Position numbers and translations under genes: made by a program. The notes beneath the pieces are model-generated. The model saw only the letters and a program-made list of their open reading frames with translations. It did not search any database and was not told the origin of the DNA. Shown piece by piece: positions 10,012-23,084 of a stretch of 64,000 nucleotides of DNA. Source of the stretch: Xanthomonas arboricola (GTDB lineage: Bacteria > Pseudomonadota > Gammaproteobacteria > Xanthomonadales > Xanthomonadaceae); assembly GCF_002940665.1 (NCBI RefSeq), contig NZ_MIGY01000001.1, positions 1,178,001-1,242,000 on the forward strand, written 5' to 3'. The stretch's first letter is position 1, and each line of letters starts with the position of its first letter.

Positions 10012-10413
10012 ATGATGATGTCCTACGGCACGTTTGTGTTTGCCCTCGATAGCGCCGCCTATCTGCAGCTGCAGCGGCAAATGAGTTGGCGCCACCCCAC
10101 CAGCGAGCGCGTCGGTGCGCGAGCGGCCAGCCAGTTCCTGGGCCCAGGCGATGAGACCATCGAGCTGTCGGGTCTGATCGCGCCGGACCTGACGGGCACG
10201 CGGACCTCGCTGGACACGTTGCGCACGCTAGCTGCCGCCGGCGAGCCGTTGCCGCTGGTGGATGGGACAGGCTTGGTCTACGGGCCGTATGTGCTGCTGT
10301 CGGTCAATGAGACGGCCTCGCTGTTCTTCCCGGATGGCACGCCACGCCGGGTCGAGTTCCAACTGAGCCTGCGCCGTGCAGACGACGTTGCGCCGGAGGC
10401 GACCGCCGCATGA
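10012..10413 (+). CDS. U: Tail protein gpU
   Basis: This 133-residue protein belongs to the P2 gpU family. Recognisable parts are FVFALDSAAYLQLQRQMSWR near the start and LRTLAAAGEPLPLVDGTG with VEFQLSLRRADD at the end. Three consecutive ATG codons (10012, 10015, 10018) are possible starts, and no clear RBS separates them. The product is needed for tail completion, with gpD. The stop overlaps the ATG of D by four bases. Confidence 0.88.
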   Translation: MMMSYGTFVFALDSAAYLQLQRQMSWRHPTSERVGARAASQFLGPGDETIELSGLIAPDLTGTRTSLDTLRTLAAAGEPLPLVDGTGLVYGPYVLLSVNETASLFFPDGTPRRVEFQLSLRRADDVAPEATAA

Positions 10414-11396
10414 ACTACCCGATTCCGCAGTGGCGCGTCGTGCTGGATGGCACCGACCTCACCGAGCGCATCGCACCGCGTCTGCTCGATCTCACCCTCA
10501 CCGAATGCCGTGGCGGCGAAGCCGATCAACTGGATCTGCGCATCCACGACCACGACGGCAAGATGGCGCTGCCCAAACGCGGAGTGCGCCTAGCGGTTGC
10601 ACTGGGCTGGAAAGCCACCGGCCTGGTCGACAAAGGCACCTTCATCGTGGACGAGGTGGAGTACAGCGGCGCACCTGACATCATCACCGTGCGCGCGCGC
10701 AGCGCAGATCTGACTGCCGACATGCGCACACGACGAGAGCGCAGCTGGCACAACACCACGCTGGGTGCAGTGCTCAACACGCTCGCCGGCGAGCATGGAC
10801 TGACCCCGCGCGTGGCCGAGGTACTGGCGCGCACCAAGTTGCCGCATCTCGACCAGGCCAACGAGAGCGACATGAATCTGCTCACTCGCCTGGGGCAGCG
10901 CTTCGATGCGGTCGCCACAGTGAAGGCAGGTGCATTGGTGTTTGCTCCGATCGGCGCCGGCACCACGGCGACCGGCAAACCGCTGCCGACTGTCACCCTG
11001 ACGCGGCGTGATGGCGATCAACACCGCTACTCCGTAGCCGACCGCGATGCCTACACCGGCGTGCGCGCGTACTGGGTGGACAAGGGCAAGGCGCGGCGGC
11101 AGTCGGTGCTGGTTGGCACAGACGACAACGCCAAGCGCCTGCGCGAGTCGTATGCCGATGAGGCAACTGCACGCCAGCACGCGCACGCGGAGCTGGAGCG
11201 GGTGAAGCGTGGCGTGGCGAAGTTCGACTACACGCTGGCGATCGGGCGAGCGGATCTGTTCCCAGAGCATATCGTCACGGTGAGCGGCTTCAGGCCGGAG
11301 ATTGATAGGCAGCGCTGGCTGATTGCAAAGACCACCCACGCCATCAACGGCTCAAGCGGTTTCACTACTTCGCTTGTGTTGGAGAGCACACCTTGA
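10410..11396 (+). CDS. D: Late control protein D (baseplate hub)
   Basis: This 328-residue protein is the P2 gpD / phage late control D family, which has a T4 gp27-like hub fold. Core motifs are LTDLTLTECRGGEADQLDL (shortened here), SADLTADMRTRRERSW and the C-terminal IDRQRWLIAKTTH. It bridges the spike gpV and the tail tube. It is the last gene of the tail operon. In P2, ogr comes next, but here an unrelated cargo cassette follows. Confidence 0.92.
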   Translation: MNYPIPQWRVVLDGTDLTERIAPRLLDLTLTECRGGEADQLDLRIHDHDGKMALPKRGVRLAVALGWKATGLVDKGTFIVDEVEYSGAPDIITVRARSADLTADMRTRRERSWHNTTLGAVLNTLAGEHGLTPRVAEVLARTKLPHLDQANESDMNLLTRLGQRFDAVATVKAGALVFAPIGAGTTATGKPLPTVTLTRRDGDQHRYSVADRDAYTGVRAYWVDKGKARRQSVLVGTDDNAKRLRESYADEATARQHAHAELERVKRGVAKFDYTLAIGRADLFPEHIVTVSGFRPEIDRQRWLIAKTTHAINGSSGFTTSLVLESTP

Positions 11397-11743
11397 ACCT
11401 TCGTGTATATCAACGTGCGGCATCCATACTAGCATCGCTACTTCTACAGATAAATTTTCTTACGGTCCCGTTCCCTTTCACAGCGACCTATCCCCCAGCA
11501 CATGTAGGAATTCTCTGATGGTCAGCTAGACGAAGGACGTTTAGCCTTGGTCATCGACGTCGTGCGACTAGGAGAATGACAAGCAGATCGCAATAAGAAC
11601 AGCGCACCAGAAACTCTAAAATCTGCTGAAAATAGGGCTCCTGGTCAATTATCTTTTCGTGTCGGAGTCGATCGACTGAACCTGCGCAGCTAATGAAAAG
11701 AGCTATGCGGACAGCCCGACCGGGAAAAAAACGGAGAATCCAG
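11397..11743. other. AT-rich spacer before the cargo cassette
   Basis: This 347-base gap is clearly richer in A and T than the tail operon. No ATG-started reading frame of more than a few codons opens on the plus strand in front of the radical SAM gene, so no separate small precursor peptide is apparent. Stretches such as TGAAAATAGG and CAATTATCTTTTC around 11617-11665 could be promoter elements, but no convincing -35/-10 pair was found. Confidence 0.5.
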
Positions 11744-12772
11744 ATGGACCTGTGCACAACGTTGTTGCCGAAAACCCTTACTTTCATCACCACGTACCGA
11801 TGCACTGCAGCCTGCACGCAGTGCTGTTTTGAAAGCAGCCCCAAGGTCAAAGGACGACTTAGTCGTGACGAGATGATTCGGGCACTTCACGATGTAAAGA
11901 ATCGCTTTAAGTCGCTGCGTGTCGTGGTGTTCACGGGCGGCGAAGCGACCTTGCTCAAAGATGACCTGATTGCCGTCATCGCCGAGGCTACCTCTCTGGG
12001 TTTGGTCACGCGTATCGTCTCCAATGGCTCTTGGGGAAAAACGAAGACCACGGCCAAGCGCTTGGCTGACAAGTTAGCCGGCGCAGGCTTGTGCGAGTTA
12101 AACATCAGCACCGGCAAGGACCACCAAGAGTGGGTTCCACAGGAATCAGTCGTCAACGCAGTGGAGGCGGCATTTAATGCTGGTGTACTTACTTTGGTGA
12201 CGGTCGAAGCTGACACCGCCGACAGCGCAAAACTGGCAGCGCTTATGAAAGACCCAACCTTGACGACCCTCCGATCAAGGGGAGTGATTGTCCAATCCAA
12301 TAGTTGGATGTCGTTCAAGGCCACTGGCGAGGAGCGAGACCACGCGCTTACAACGGGACGACGTGCCACACCATGCGAACAGATTCACAGCAACATTGTC
12401 GTCACGCCGTACGGCGAGGTCTCGGCGTGCTGTGGGCTGACGTTGGAGCACATTCCCGAAATGAAGTTGGGAACAATGCATGAGGGTGTTTCCGACACAT
12501 ATCTACTACAGCGTGATGACTTCCTCAAATACTGGCTGCGCATGGACGGCCCGGGGGAAATCGTGCGCAAGGTTATGGGCGATGAGCGCGCTGATGAATT
12601 GCTGTCCGATTCTGTACATATCTGCCAGGACTGTGCCGTGCTGCACAAGAACCCCGAGATTCGCGAGCGAATTGCTGCTACTTACGAGCAATTCGTTCCA
12701 GAGGTGATGAGCCGCTACGCGCTCACCTCAGCTATCGATCAACTTGTCGAACAAAAGGAGTGTGGACGGTGA
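11744..12772 (+). CDS. Radical SAM protein with SPASM-type cysteine motif (prophage cargo)
   Basis: This 342-residue protein has the radical SAM iron-sulfur motif C20-x3-C24-x2-C27 and the glycine-rich SAM-binding stretch FTGGEATLL. Its C-terminal cysteine set fits a SPASM or shortened twitch domain: C211-x12-G224-x4-C229, then C294-x2-C297. Such enzymes modify peptides or proteins. The ATG at 11744 has GGAG 8 bases upstream; the upstream ATG at 11693 has no RBS. The gene overlaps the next one by four bases, which suggests that its partner is the exported protein encoded there. Substrate and product are unknown. Confidence 0.82.
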   Translation: MDLCTTLLPKTLTFITTYRCTAACTQCCFESSPKVKGRLSRDEMIRALHDVKNRFKSLRVVVFTGGEATLLKDDLIAVIAEATSLGLVTRIVSNGSWGKTKTTAKRLADKLAGAGLCELNISTGKDHQEWVPQESVVNAVEAAFNAGVLTLVTVEADTADSAKLAALMKDPTLTTLRSRGVIVQSNSWMSFKATGEERDHALTTGRRATPCEQIHSNIVVTPYGEVSACCGLTLEHIPEMKLGTMHEGVSDTYLLQRDDFLKYWLRMDGPGEIVRKVMGDERADELLSDSVHICQDCAVLHKNPEIRERIAATYEQFVPEVMSRYALTSAIDQLVEQKECGR

Positions 12773-13815
12773 AGCGACGGAAGTTCATTCAGTCAAGTCT
12801 TGTAGCCGGTGCCGCTGCTGCTGCTCCCGTGGGCGCGGCAGCGATCGAAGGCACAGCAAGGGTGTTTGGCGAGCCCGCAAGCCTAACCGGTGGCACCGCC
12901 AATGCCACGGTTACCAAGATGCTGCTTCCGCTGTCGCGGGGAGGCATGCCAGCAGAAGGATGGGACCGCTGGTCGCGCTTGTCCGCCTCCGTTGTTCAAA
13001 TGTTCTCAGACCCGGCGCAGCGCGAGGTGTTCAACTCGAACCCACAGAAATTTTTGTCCACGGTAGGGTACGATGCCCGAGCGCTTGACGCACCAACCCT
13101 ATCCCTGCTCGTTGCGCTTTCAGCACCAGAAGTCCAGAGCGCAGTCCACGAAAAGGACTATGCATCGCTGCTCAGCTATCTTCATGTTTCCGGAGCGCTG
13201 GATAGGCCAAAGCCGGATGCGCTTACCCAACAGATGGCCAAGGTCCTGTCTACGAACCTTGGGATCATCAAGGAATCCTTGGGGCTGGCCCCAGATTCAC
13301 CACTGACGGGCGAAATCGTCCAGAAGTTCGTTTCAACCGGCAACGCTTCGCCGTCGACGGCTGACCTGGCCGCGATCGGTAACATTGCCGAGTTAGTGCG
13401 TGTAGCACCGGGTCAGGCAGTTGTTGGGGCGTTCGCGCTAGCTGTGGCAGCGGTAGAGGCGGCAGTGGGTGTGCACGCCGTAGCCGTCCTGTTCACTGCT
13501 ATTACATTTGTCAACAGCGTGTCGGTAACTGGCCAGAGACCGATGGATCAAGTGGCTGAAATGTCAGCGTTCACAGGGCAGATGAGTCGCTTAGATCCTG
13601 AGATCTGCGAAAGTTGCAGCGTTGCGCAGCGCGCTGCTGCAATGCTGGGCGCTCCTGCGTTGTATTCGGAGCACGCGAAGTTGGTCATCCGAAACGAAGT
13701 GGCGGCGTTCCTGCGCGCCATGCAGCAAGTGGGCCTGATTTCATATGAGGAACACGCATTTCCCACTATCGTCGATGCTGTTTATGAATATGGCATGCGC
13801 ACGATTGCAGCATAG
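12769..13815 (+). CDS. Tat-signal exported protein of unknown function (prophage cargo)
   Basis: This 348-residue protein starts at a GTG with AGGAG 8 bases upstream. Its N-terminus KRRKFIQSSLVAG followed by an alanine-rich segment looks like a twin-arginine export signal. Residues about 85-145 (DPAQREVFNSNPQKFL, LDAPTLSLLVALS) resemble the small helical LigA-type domain also seen in some peptide precursors. A hydrophobic segment lies at about 220-250, and a C-x2-C (CESC) at about residues 280-283. It is probably the substrate or partner of the radical SAM enzyme encoded just upstream. No family was firmly recognised. Confidence 0.65.
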   Translation: MKRRKFIQSSLVAGAAAAAPVGAAAIEGTARVFGEPASLTGGTANATVTKMLLPLSRGGMPAEGWDRWSRLSASVVQMFSDPAQREVFNSNPQKFLSTVGYDARALDAPTLSLLVALSAPEVQSAVHEKDYASLLSYLHVSGALDRPKPDALTQQMAKVLSTNLGIIKESLGLAPDSPLTGEIVQKFVSTGNASPSTADLAAIGNIAELVRVAPGQAVVGAFALAVAAVEAAVGVHAVAVLFTAITFVNSVSVTGQRPMDQVAEMSAFTGQMSRLDPEICESCSVAQRAAAMLGAPALYSEHAKLVIRNEVAAFLRAMQQVGLISYEEHAFPTIVDAVYEYGMRTIAA

Positions 13816-13827
13816 GAGAAATTAAAC

Positions 13828-14346
13828 ATGAATTGCGATATCCCACTGCACTTGGCCGATGGCAAGACATATCTTGCGATCTTCGGTCCGTTCGTGCTTG
13901 TCATGGGGCTCGTGGCATATATGCTCTATGCCGGCAAAGCGCCAACTCCATCAAAAAAGGCTGCTTTGGCGGCGGTTCTCCTAGTCAATATTGGAGCTGC
14001 GTCATTCTTCATCTGGCAGGCACGTAGCGCTCAAGTTACTGTCGGTGACGACAGCCTTACACTGCGCGTTGGGACGGAGAGGGTGATCGTGCCGTTGAGC
14101 GCCCTGCGCTTGGACGAAGCATTGGATGCAACATCCATTCGCTTCCCCCTACGCAAGTTCGGCACCAGCCTGCCGGGAATGCACACTGGCTGGTTCCGAA
14201 AAGAGGGAGGCGGTGACGCATTTCTACTGCGCTCTTCGGAGCCCTCGACGCTCGTCCCGACCTCCAGTCAATTCGACGTGGTCATTCCCACCGTGGCCTA
14301 CGAACAAGTACGTCAGTGCGCATCTGCCCCCAGAGCAGCGCAGTAG
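13828..14346 (+). CDS. Membrane protein with bacterial PH-like domain (prophage cargo)
   Basis: This 172-residue protein has two predicted membrane segments, residues about 17-35 and 45-65. A soluble domain of the small bacterial PH type (bPH_5-like) follows: VGDDSLTLRVGTERVIV, GTSLPGMHTGWF and a final FDVVIPT. GGAG 9 bases before the ATG serves as RBS, and only 12 bases separate it from the exported protein gene. It is the last gene of the cassette, before a strong terminator. It may anchor or regulate the exported product; this is inference. Confidence 0.65.
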   Translation: MNCDIPLHLADGKTYLAIFGPFVLVMGLVAYMLYAGKAPTPSKKAALAAVLLVNIGAASFFIWQARSAQVTVGDDSLTLRVGTERVIVPLSALRLDEALDATSIRFPLRKFGTSLPGMHTGWFRKEGGGDAFLLRSSEPSTLVPTSSQFDVVIPTVAYEQVRQCASAPRAAQ

Positions 14347-14372
14347 GTTCTCTAACTGGATGATTGCTGATC

Positions 14373-14399
14373 AGCCGGCGGCCTTCCGCCGGCTTTTTT
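14373..14399 (+). terminator. Rho-independent terminator of the cargo cassette
   Basis: A perfect 9-bp stem AGCCGGCGG / CCGCCGGCT with a CTT loop region is followed by TTTTTT. It lies 26 bases after the third cargo gene and before the convergent repressor gene. Confidence 0.92.
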
Positions 14400-14501
14400 A
14401 TGACAGCCGCTTTGCTTAGCGAAATCAATCATTAAACGTCTGCCGCTGGTTGCCGATAACGCACTCTTTTGCGAGGACCAGCTGTCCTATCTGTAACTCG
14501 A

Positions 14502-14939
14502 TCAGGACTTCTTTTTTTTGCGCCCGCCAACATTGATTTGTATGTGGCTTTGATCGACGATCGCTGTCGTCGAAACCGCTTGGCCCACGTCGCTGTTGTC
14601 GAACGACAGGACTGGGCCAGCCCCTGTATTGGAAGACGAGGCATCGCTTACCAAGCCCAATGCCGCAAGCACAGCGTTGCGAGCAGCCGGTGCTGCATCT
14701 TTGAACGCAGACAGCAGGAGCCTATCAGCAGGGTCCAACTGCGCCCGATGTCCAGACAGCACGTACATGACATCAACGCCACGGTCTAGCGCGGCCAGTA
14801 GATAAGCTCCGCCGGGCAGATTGATGTCTTTCTCGAAGTTCAGTTGCGCGTAGCGCGTGAGGCCAAGTTGCACAGCCATCTCGTCCTGCGTCAGGCCAAG
14901 TCGCTTGCGCTCTTCCTTCAGGCGTTTCCCTACCGTCAT
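14502..14939 (-). CDS. XRE-family phage repressor (CI/C-like)
   Basis: This 145-residue protein has an N-terminal helix-turn-helix of the XRE type (GKRLKEERKRLGLTQDEMA, LNFEKDINLPG). A variable C-terminal part ends in GRKKKKS. There is no S24 peptidase-like domain, so it is probably not cleaved in an SOS-dependent way. The ATG at 14939 has AAGGA about 9 bases upstream; ATG 14948 and TTG 14963 in the same frame are less well placed. It is divergent from the early operon across a 71-base gap, the classic lysogeny switch layout. Confidence 0.85.
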   Translation of the reverse strand: MTVGKRLKEERKRLGLTQDEMAVQLGLTRYAQLNFEKDINLPGGAYLLAALDRGVDVMYVLSGHRAQLDPADRLLLSAFKDAAPAARNAVLAALGLVSDASSSNTGAGPVLSFDNSDVGQAVSTTAIVDQSHIQINVGGRKKKKS

Positions 14940-14952
14940 TACAGGCATTTCC

Positions 14953-14985
14953 TTACTTGACAATGTTAAGTTAAGTCCACAAAAT
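14953..14985 (+). promoter_or_regulatory. Early promoter and repressor operator
   Basis: On the plus strand TTGACA (14957-14962) and CAAAAT (14980-14985) are spaced by 17 bases. The imperfect dyad CTTGACAATGTTAAG overlaps the -35, and a second TTAAG half-site follows directly (GTTAAGTTAAG). This fits a promoter for the early operon that the minus-strand repressor can block. The repressor promoter on the other strand was not resolved. Confidence 0.6.
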
Positions 14986-15010
14986 TCCCAAAAGTAGACG
15001 GAACCACCAC

Positions 15011-23008: not shown

Positions 23009-23084
23009 TGGTGGGCCCAGAAGGATTCGAACCTTCAACCAAAGGATTATGAGTCCTCTGCTCTAACCGTTGAGCTATAGGCCC
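23009..23084 (-). tRNA. tRNA with CAT anticodon, probably tRNA-Ile2
   Basis: The 76-base gene folds as a full cloverleaf with encoded CCA: the acceptor GGGCCTA pairs with TGGGCCC, the anticodon loop is CTCATAA, and the T arm contains GGTTCGAATCC. The GACTCATAATC arm followed by CTTTGGTT is close to E. coli ileX, whose CAT anticodon is modified to read ATA. Elongator tRNA-Met cannot be excluded by eye. Its 3' end faces the integrase and probably contains the att core. Confidence 0.9.

What the first reader, a model, noticed from the sequence alone, without database searches (positions are those of the whole stretch)
11744..14346. Three-gene cassette in the P2-like prophage: SPASM radical SAM enzyme, Tat-exported protein, membrane PH-like protein
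Seen: the three genes are in one strand with a 4-base overlap, a 12-base gap and a single terminator at 14373-14399, in an AT-richer block between D and the repressor. The enzyme has C20-x3-C24-x2-C27 and a C-x12-G-x4-C SPASM signature. The next gene encodes a twin-arginine-type signal, a LigA-like helical region and a C-x2-C motif. Known: SPASM enzymes modify peptides or proteins made next to them, and the end of P2-like tail operons is a hot spot for cargo such as anti-phage systems. Inferred: the enzyme modifies the exported protein before Tat export, and the membrane PH-like protein holds or senses it. No named system with this combination was recognised, so it may be undescribed.
Basis: partly seen in the sequence, partly recalled or inferred. 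Interest (0 to 1): 0.78.

Follow-up and report, generated by a model that had tools for sequence, protein, structure and literature searches.

The report
Prophage enzyme, exported protein, membrane guard
A virus dormant in a plant-associated bacterium carries three genes that travel together, probably an enzyme that chemically alters a neighbouring protein, which is then exported across the inner membrane, plus a membrane protein that may protect the cell from it; the libraries and papers searched held no described system with this combination.

Summary
Three genes lie between tail gene D and a repressor-like gene of a P2-like prophage in a Xanthomonas genome: radical SAM enzyme A (11744-12772), twin-arginine protein B (12769-13815), membrane PH-like protein C (13828-14346). 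The same order was found in 11 distinct genomes (Xanthomonas, Stenotrophomonas, Luteimonas, Dokdonella; A broken in two) and in 6 of 6 IMG/VR loci (A interrupted in one). A, B and C diverge in step.

A is nearest to the epipeptide epimerase YydG/EpeE, far below that family's cut-off. Distant relatives of A lie near ORFs with a leader-like motif that is invariant in B, in 5 of 10 loci read. So B looks like an oversized RiPP-type precursor with a Tat signal. In two genomes of the X. albilineans group the C slot holds a bPH_4 protein related to SunI, the immunity protein of a prophage bacteriocin.

Best reading: A modifies B, Tat exports it, B acts on the inner membrane, C protects. Competition or anti-phage defence is open: the same slot in sister prophages carries Pycsar and a TIR defence candidate. 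B's CxxC is not conserved, and A is not a full SPASM enzyme. No activity was tested.

The parts
11744..12772 (+). Gene A: radical SAM enzyme, 342 aa, nearest to YydG/EpeE, with a Twitch-like C-terminal half
   Evidence: Pfam Radical_SAM 42.5 bits; TIGR04078 rSAM_yydG 73 bits, best of 37 NCBIfam models but cut-off 300; PDB YydG E 1.4e-16 with the profile, N-terminal part only
11801..11824 (+). C-x3-C-x2-C motif of gene A (residues 20-27), expected ligands of the SAM-binding cluster
   Evidence: invariant in 8 of 8 sequences of A6
12374..12433 (+). First auxiliary-type motif of gene A, C211-x13-G-x3-CC (residues 211-230)
   Evidence: C211, C229 and C230 invariant in 8 of 8 sequences
12623..12634 (+). 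Second auxiliary-type motif of gene A, C294-x2-C297
   Evidence: invariant in 8 of 8 sequences
12769..13815 (+). Gene B: 348 aa protein with Tat-type signal, proposed substrate of A (oversized precursor-like protein)
   Evidence: with A in 11 distinct genomes; no protein family above cut-off; AlphaFold2 model all-helical but poor, mean pLDDT 50.8
12769..12843 (+). Twin-arginine-type signal of B (K-R-R-K-F-I)
   Evidence: R3 and R4 invariant in 9 of 9 sequences; Pfam TAT_signal 16.8 bits, below cut-off 22.7; the host has TatC
13030..13074 (+). Leader-like motif of B, F88-x3-P92-x3-L96-x3-G100-x-D102
   Evidence: these five residues invariant in 9 of 9; a motif of this form found in 16 of 477 ORFs, 10 of them B proteins and 5 near relatives of A
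13384..13554 (+). Ala/Val/Gly-rich hydrophobic stretch of B (residues 206-262), proposed site of modification and membrane action
   Evidence: a hydrophobic stretch at this place in 8 of 8 B proteins and in the B-like ORF of L086; L023 has one more, weaker, at 292-310
13828..14346 (+). Gene C: membrane protein with two hydrophobic helices and a PH-like domain, proposed immunity protein
   Evidence: bPH_5 17.4 bits, below cut-off 22.5, in the window; above cut-off in L021, L022, L023, L024; hhalign to the bPH_4 protein of the same slot in G1299, E 8.8e-5, prob 60%
14373..14394 (+). Terminator-like stem followed by T run
   Evidence: not above shuffled expectation
10410..11396 (+). Flank: tail gene D of the P2-like prophage
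   Evidence: 64% identical over 85% to D of Stenotrophomonas phage Smp131
14502..14963 (-). Flank: repressor-like gene closing the cargo slot

Best explanation
The cassette makes a chemically modified protein that acts on the cell envelope, together with the protein that protects its maker. Seen in the sequences: three co-inherited genes under selection; a radical SAM enzyme with conserved cysteines for a second cluster; a Tat-type signal, a leader-like motif and a hydrophobic stretch in B; a PH-like membrane protein in third place. Inferred: A docks on the leader-like helical region of B and abstracts hydrogen from residues of its Ala/Val-rich stretch, most likely turning some L residues into D residues as YydG/EpeE does. 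The Tat pathway then carries the product to the periplasm. There the hydrophobic stretch disturbs the inner membrane, as a bacteriocin released when the prophage lyses its host or as a cell-killing defence effector. C, in the inner membrane, is the cognate immunity protein, of the kind of SunI. My probabilities: A modifies B about 0.75; C is immunity about 0.5; the whole chain as stated 0.4.
For: A, B and a C-slot protein in the same order in 11 distinct genomes and in 6 of 6 IMG/VR loci. In the family search (297 genomes), 8 genomes have a complete or broken-but-near-complete A, and all 8 have B and a C-slot protein after it; the only other specific match is a short fragment of A in G1222. 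Distances of A, B and C correlate at r 0.98-0.99 (Mantel, 8 sequences, some closely related). dN/dS is 0.07-0.19. A is nearest to the YydG epimerase. ORFs with the leader-like motif lie near distant relatives of A in 5 of the 10 loci read: adjacent in L055, L056, L086, L089, about 1.2 kb downstream in L087. In L086 the ORF also has a hydrophobic stretch and no Tat signal. Two genomes of the genus group of X. albilineans (G1299, G1264) carry a bPH_4 protein (89 and 80 bits) in the C slot; that of G1299 aligns with SunI at BLASTP E 1e-9 for a single comparison, and SunI passes the bPH_4 cut-off. SunI and sublancin are both encoded by prophage SPbeta (PMC6391423, abstract and passages; gene table).
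Against: The motif was written after seeing the sequences, so its count is post hoc, and 5 of the 10 distant loci (L057, L058, L059, L088, L090) have no such ORF. HMM matches of B to the neighbouring ORFs are individually not significant (best E 0.19; hhalign E 0.004-0.017). A scores 73 bits against YydG's cut-off of 300, and only the N-terminal part aligns. TAT_signal is below cut-off in B and in L021 and unmatched in L020, L023 and L167. No exporter across the outer membrane is part of the conserved cassette, which is awkward for a secreted bacteriocin; an efflux-adaptor-like ORF follows C in L021 (by eye), and neighbours were not searched for exporters. B's hydrophobic region is not strikingly variable: 28% mean identity between distant copies against 36% for the leader-like region and 26% for residues 146-205. 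The window's C is below all PH cut-offs, L020's C matches no PH family, and the direct comparison of the C family with SunI is weak (prob 4.7%). PH membrane proteins have other roles, such as bacteriocin transport (PMC8657885, abstract and passages). Positive-inside counts do not fix C's topology.
Confidence: 0.4

Rival explanations
1. It is a prophage anti-phage system. Modified B waits in the periplasm or inner membrane and blocks superinfecting DNA entry, or kills the cell on infection, with C as its restraint or sensor.
For: The same D-repressor slot in sister Xanthomonas prophages carries Pycsar (PycC 244 bits and PycTM 112 bits, G030) and a TIR candidate PDC-S35 (253 bits, G034): 2 of the 6 slots whose cargo was scanned (10 proteins). 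No outer-membrane exporter is needed for this role. The slot's content varies between prophages (by eye).
Against: No PADLOC model matches B or C, and the viperin models match A only over the radical SAM core. Nothing looked like a defence island around the copies outside this slot, but those neighbours were not scanned with defence models. In the other 4 scanned slots one gene is amidase-like and nothing else passed a Pfam cut-off or matched a PADLOC model.
Confidence: 0.3
2. A matures B as anaerobic sulfatase maturases or QhpD mature exported enzymes (recalled), and B is a structural or redox protein of the periplasm with no toxic role; C is an anchor.
For: B is about 350 residues, modelled as helical though poorly, and under purifying selection; Tat usually exports folded proteins (recalled).
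Against: No catalytic family is recognised in B. Its CxxC is not conserved. The scattered distribution (6 of 199 relatives with a match, the window's own included and one short and doubtful) suits cargo better than housekeeping. The SunI-like variant in the C slot is not explained.
Confidence: 0.2
3. A and B are functionally unrelated genes that share an operon by chance of cargo capture.
For: Both belong to widespread themes (radical SAM enzymes, Tat proteins).
Against: Repeated co-occurrence and parallel divergence at different sites.
Confidence: 0.05

Closest known systems
YydG/EpeE epipeptide epimerase with YydF/EpeX (Bacillus subtilis)
   Same: Closest described enzyme by sequence; EpeE has two [4Fe-4S] clusters (PMC8326336, passages), and the further conserved cysteines of A would allow the same; substrate encoded next to the enzyme
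   Different: A is far below the family cut-off (73 against 300 bits); the proposed substrate here is 348 aa with a Tat signal; the conserved cassette has no transporter or protease gene; the third gene is a PH-like membrane protein
Proteusins and other large-leader RiPPs (PoyA/PoyD)
   Same: Long precursor with a large leader region and radical SAM epimerisation (PMC8326336, passages)
   Different: Proteusin epimerases have one cluster and no significant homology with EpeE (PMC8326336, passages); no proteusin-type model matched B
Sublancin 168 and its immunity protein SunI on prophage SPbeta
   Same: Prophage-borne modified antimicrobial with a PH-domain immunity protein; SunI passes bPH_4, the family of the C-slot protein in G1299
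   Different: Sublancin is a small glycosylated peptide with an ABC exporter gene beside it; no radical SAM enzyme or Tat signal in its gene cluster as listed
Leaderless enterocin DD14 with PH proteins DdE and DdF
   Same: Membrane PH proteins beside a bacteriocin (PMC8657885, abstract and passages)
   Different: There the PH proteins are involved in export; the peptides are leaderless
Anaerobic sulfatase maturases and QhpD (recalled)
   Same: Radical SAM enzymes that modify a protein destined for export
   Different: Their substrates are enzymes or enzyme subunits of known families; B matched none of the families searched

Membership tests
YydG family radical SAM peptide epimerase (TIGR04078) | Score above the curated cut-off of 300 bits | tested here: not met
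   73.1 bits, about 125 N-terminal residues only
YydG family radical SAM peptide epimerase (TIGR04078) | C-x3-C-x2-C and ligands for one auxiliary cluster | tested here: inconclusive
   Motif present and C211, C229, C230, C294, C297 invariant; the C-terminal half could not be aligned with EpeE
YydG family radical SAM peptide epimerase (TIGR04078) | Hydrogen-donor cysteine (Cys223 in EpeE) and D residues in the product | not testable with these tools
SPASM radical SAM proteins (PF13186) | SPASM domain above cut-off | tested here: not met
   14.9-15 bits against 21.5
RiPP systems | Modifying enzyme next to a precursor with a leader-like recognition region | tested here: inconclusive
   Motif shared by B and ORFs near distant relatives of A in 5 of 10 loci, but homology not significant by HMM
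RiPP systems | Modified residues in the product and leader removal | not testable with these tools
   needs mass spectrometry
Tat substrates | Conserved twin arginine followed by a hydrophobic region | tested here: met
   RR invariant in 9 of 9; RRx[FL][IL] in 6 of 6 tested. The following Ala-rich region is weakly hydrophobic: no window over the transmembrane threshold in 8 of 8
Tat substrates | Pfam TAT_signal above cut-off | tested here: not met
   16.8 bits against 22.7 in the window; 14.4 in L021, no match in L020, L023, L167
Bacterial PH-domain immunity proteins (SunI kind) | PH domain above a Pfam cut-off | tested here: not met
   Window C: bPH_5 17.4 of 22.5, bPH_10 20.1 of 27. L021, L022, L023, L024 pass bPH_5; the C-slot proteins of L167 and L168 pass bPH_4; L018 is below and L020 matches no PH family
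Bacterial PH-domain immunity proteins (SunI kind) | Confers immunity to the neighbouring product | not testable with these tools
   needs expression with and without C
Viperin (prokaryotic, NF038283, PADLOC pVip) | Score above cut-off | tested here: not met
   36 bits against 180; PADLOC match only over the core domain
Known anti-phage systems (PADLOC) | A model matching B or C | tested here: not met
   0 families for both
P2-like prophage cargo slot | Variable genes between conserved phage genes | tested here: met
   Both flanks found in 10 of 15 Xanthomonas stretches, with varying content by eye

The most novel reading that the evidence does not exclude
A new class of radical SAM-modified product: a whole protein of about 350 residues with an embedded recognition region, bearing D residues or another radical-made modification in a hydrophobic stretch, exported folded by Tat and held in check by a PH-domain immunity protein. 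Phages spread it as a self-contained three-gene weapon or defence module.
Probability: 0.3. Interest if true: 0.85.

Novelty: new variant of a known kind. Interest (0 to 1): 0.6.

Why it matters
If A modifies B, RiPP-type chemistry would reach a full-sized Tat-exported protein, a directly testable case. Three word searches of the held papers gave no description of such a substrate (0 papers; 0; 1, unrelated by its title and abstract start); most subscription journals are not in that library. It would also add a cargo type to a prophage slot that elsewhere holds Pycsar, and link PH-domain immunity proteins to radical SAM-modified products.

Tried and rejected
Viperin: rejected, only the shared radical SAM core matches. 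Full SPASM enzyme: rejected. CxxC of B as functional centre: rejected, not conserved. B in phage or plasmid records: no match at E 0.01; B is in IMG/VR contigs. Known RNA in 11300-15000: none at gathering threshold. SunI by direct profile comparison with the C family: weak. C topology by charge: not decisive. B family in the wider class: 2 of 369 genomes, both already known. More systems like L086 among 80 relatives of G949: no second close one. Structure of B: model too poor for a fold (mean pLDDT 50.8); no fold search was completed and C was never folded.
Full report
What is there. The window lies in a genome of the genus of G008, whose contig of 404322 bases has the length of X. prunicola NZ_PHKV01000005.1; I infer Xanthomonas, species unknown. 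Between tail gene D (10410-11396, 64% identical over 85% to phage Smp131) and a reverse-strand repressor-like gene (14502-14963) lie three genes on one strand: A at 11744-12772, B at 12769-13815 overlapping by four bases, and C at 13828-14346 after a 12-base gap. Their G+C is 55-58% against 66% for the window.

Gene A. Pfam sees a radical SAM domain (42.5 bits). Among NCBIfam models the YydG epimerase is best at 73 bits, the next being 40 bits, but its cut-off is 300. Against solved structures a profile of eight relatives finds only YydG chains at E up to 0.01 (best 1.4e-16), over the N-terminal part. Cysteines C20, C24, C27, C28, C211, C229, C230, C294 and C297 are invariant in 8 of 8. This pattern would fit one auxiliary cluster; EpeE has two clusters in all (PMC8326336, passages). 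The seven-cysteine definition of SPASM is recalled.

Gene B. No family passes its cut-off. The twin arginine is invariant in 9 of 9, though Pfam TAT_signal stays below cut-off, and the host has TatC. Beyond the signal, the invariant residues include F88, P92, L96, G100 and D102, a leader-like motif. A hydrophobic stretch lies near residues 206-262 in 8 of 8 B proteins examined; L023 has a second, weaker one. The AlphaFold2 model is all-helical but poor: in blocks of ten, pLDDT is 61-76 for residues 71-140, 55-69 for 281-348, and below 50 for 210-276.

Gene C. Two hydrophobic helices and a PH-like domain. The window copy is below all Pfam cut-offs, but bPH_5 passes in L021 (36.7), L022 (35.0), L023 (32.3) and L024 (24.3); L018 is below and L020 matches no PH family.

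The cassette travels as a unit. G029 has it in the same prophage position. Whether the other sites lie in mobile elements was not tested. Six of six IMG/VR loci found with A carry it between D and the repressor-like gene, one with A interrupted. In the family search, 297 genomes gave 38 with any match to A. Nine are specific: eight with B and a C-slot protein, and one (G1222) with only a fragment of A and neither B nor C detected in the 10.5 kb fetched. Pairwise distances of A, B and C correlate at r 0.99, 0.99 and 0.98 (8 sequences, some closely related). dN/dS is 0.07-0.19 in the pairs that could be computed; for the pairs of the window with L018 and L019 synonymous sites are near saturation, and for A not computable.

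Link between A and B. Distant relatives of A (E 1e-76 to 7e-11) were found in genomes of the same order and phylum, and ten such loci were read. The motif [FLMI]x3Px2[FYVTML][LM]x3G[ILVMYF] occurs in 16 of 477 longest non-overlapping ORFs in 35 loci. Ten are B proteins (eight distinct, two loci being held twice). Five are ORFs near relatives of A: adjacent in L055, L056, L086 and L089, about 1.2 kb downstream in L087 (the place of A there). One, also in L087, is unrelated. Shuffled proteins give a mean of 1.1. No such ORF was found at the other five of the ten loci (L057, L058, L059, L088, L090), although L090 has a short ORF of another type beside the enzyme. The motif was chosen after inspection. 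An HMM of B ranks three of these ORFs first, third and fourth among 640, without significance (E 0.19-0.55). In L086 the ORF is 262 aa, with the motif near its start, a Gly/Cys/Val-rich stretch and no Tat signal, followed by A and a second, cobalamin-type radical SAM enzyme (the latter by eye). I read this as B being a precursor-like substrate that acquired a Tat signal.

Link between C and immunity. In G1299 and G1264 the third gene is a shorter PH protein of family bPH_4 (89 and 80 bits, cut-off 22.9). SunI of prophage SPbeta (gene table) is bPH_8 'SunI-like' (86.6 bits) and also passes bPH_4 (24.5 bits), and aligns with the G1299 protein at 28% over 95 aa (single-comparison E 1e-9). The C family aligns with the G1299 protein at hhalign E 8.8e-5, prob 60%, but with SunI only weakly (prob 4.7%). 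Sublancin and SunI are both encoded by SPbeta (PMC6391423, abstract and passages). PH proteins are alternatively bacteriocin transporters in the enterocin DD14 system (PMC8657885, abstract and passages).

The site. Of 35 Xanthomonas genomes, 20 have a match to the D gene, one of them over 36 bases only. I fetched 15 stretches after D, from 14 genomes. In 10 of 15 both D and the repressor-like gene were found, with varying genes between them (by eye; L138 and L139 look alike). In G003 D is followed by the first 56 residues of A and then transposase-like ORFs (by eye), and no B was found in that genome. Of six slots whose cargo was scanned (10 proteins), two hold defence genes: Pycsar PycC and PycTM in G030, and a TIR candidate PDC-S35 in G034. 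The published E. coli P2 hot spot lies between genes A and Q (PMC9122126, passages), so this is a different slot.

Judgement. That A acts on B is well supported by context (about 0.75). That C is an immunity protein is plausible (about 0.5). Whether the product is a bacteriocin or a defence effector cannot be decided: the SunI precedent favours the first; the slot's other cargo, and the lack of an outer-membrane exporter in the conserved cassette, favour the second (in L021 an efflux-adaptor-like ORF follows C, by eye; neighbours were not searched for exporters). Searches of the held papers for Tat with radical SAM and precursor peptide found nothing, nor did Xanthomonas, prophage, radical SAM and Tat; one search gave one paper, unrelated by its title and abstract start.

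Noticed in passing
L144 5302-6492 (G030); L137 5569-6489 (G034): The D-repressor slot of sister Xanthomonas P2-like prophages holds a Pycsar pair and a TIR-domain defence candidate.
   Followed up: partly
L132 669-2271 (G003); L029 4618-6001: Two copies of gene A are interrupted at about the same residue (56), one followed by transposase-like ORFs (by eye); B and C remain in L029.
   Followed up: no
L018 2237-3793; L020 8612-10390: The cassette lies near a comM-like gene (Mg-chelatase family, by eye) in both X. albilineans and S. maltophilia, possibly a shared insertion area.
   Followed up: no
L055 4918-10894; L056 1949-7956: Clusters with a relative of A, further radical SAM-like ORFs, a methyltransferase-like ORF and a 79-99 aa precursor-like ORF (by eye; no literature search made for them).
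   Followed up: partly
L089 3597-6085; L087 4204-6840: Precursor-like ORFs rich in S, A, V and D (in L089 with repeats of SVADIATDAAS) near a relative of A and a second SPASM-like ORF (by eye).
   Followed up: no
L021 8939-10210: An efflux-adaptor-like ORF follows the cassette in the Dokdonella MAG (by eye); whether it belongs to it was not tested.
   Followed up: no
window 23009-23084: The only tRNA gene found in the window (tRNA-Met, minus strand), a possible end of the prophage; attachment sites were not sought.
   Followed up: no
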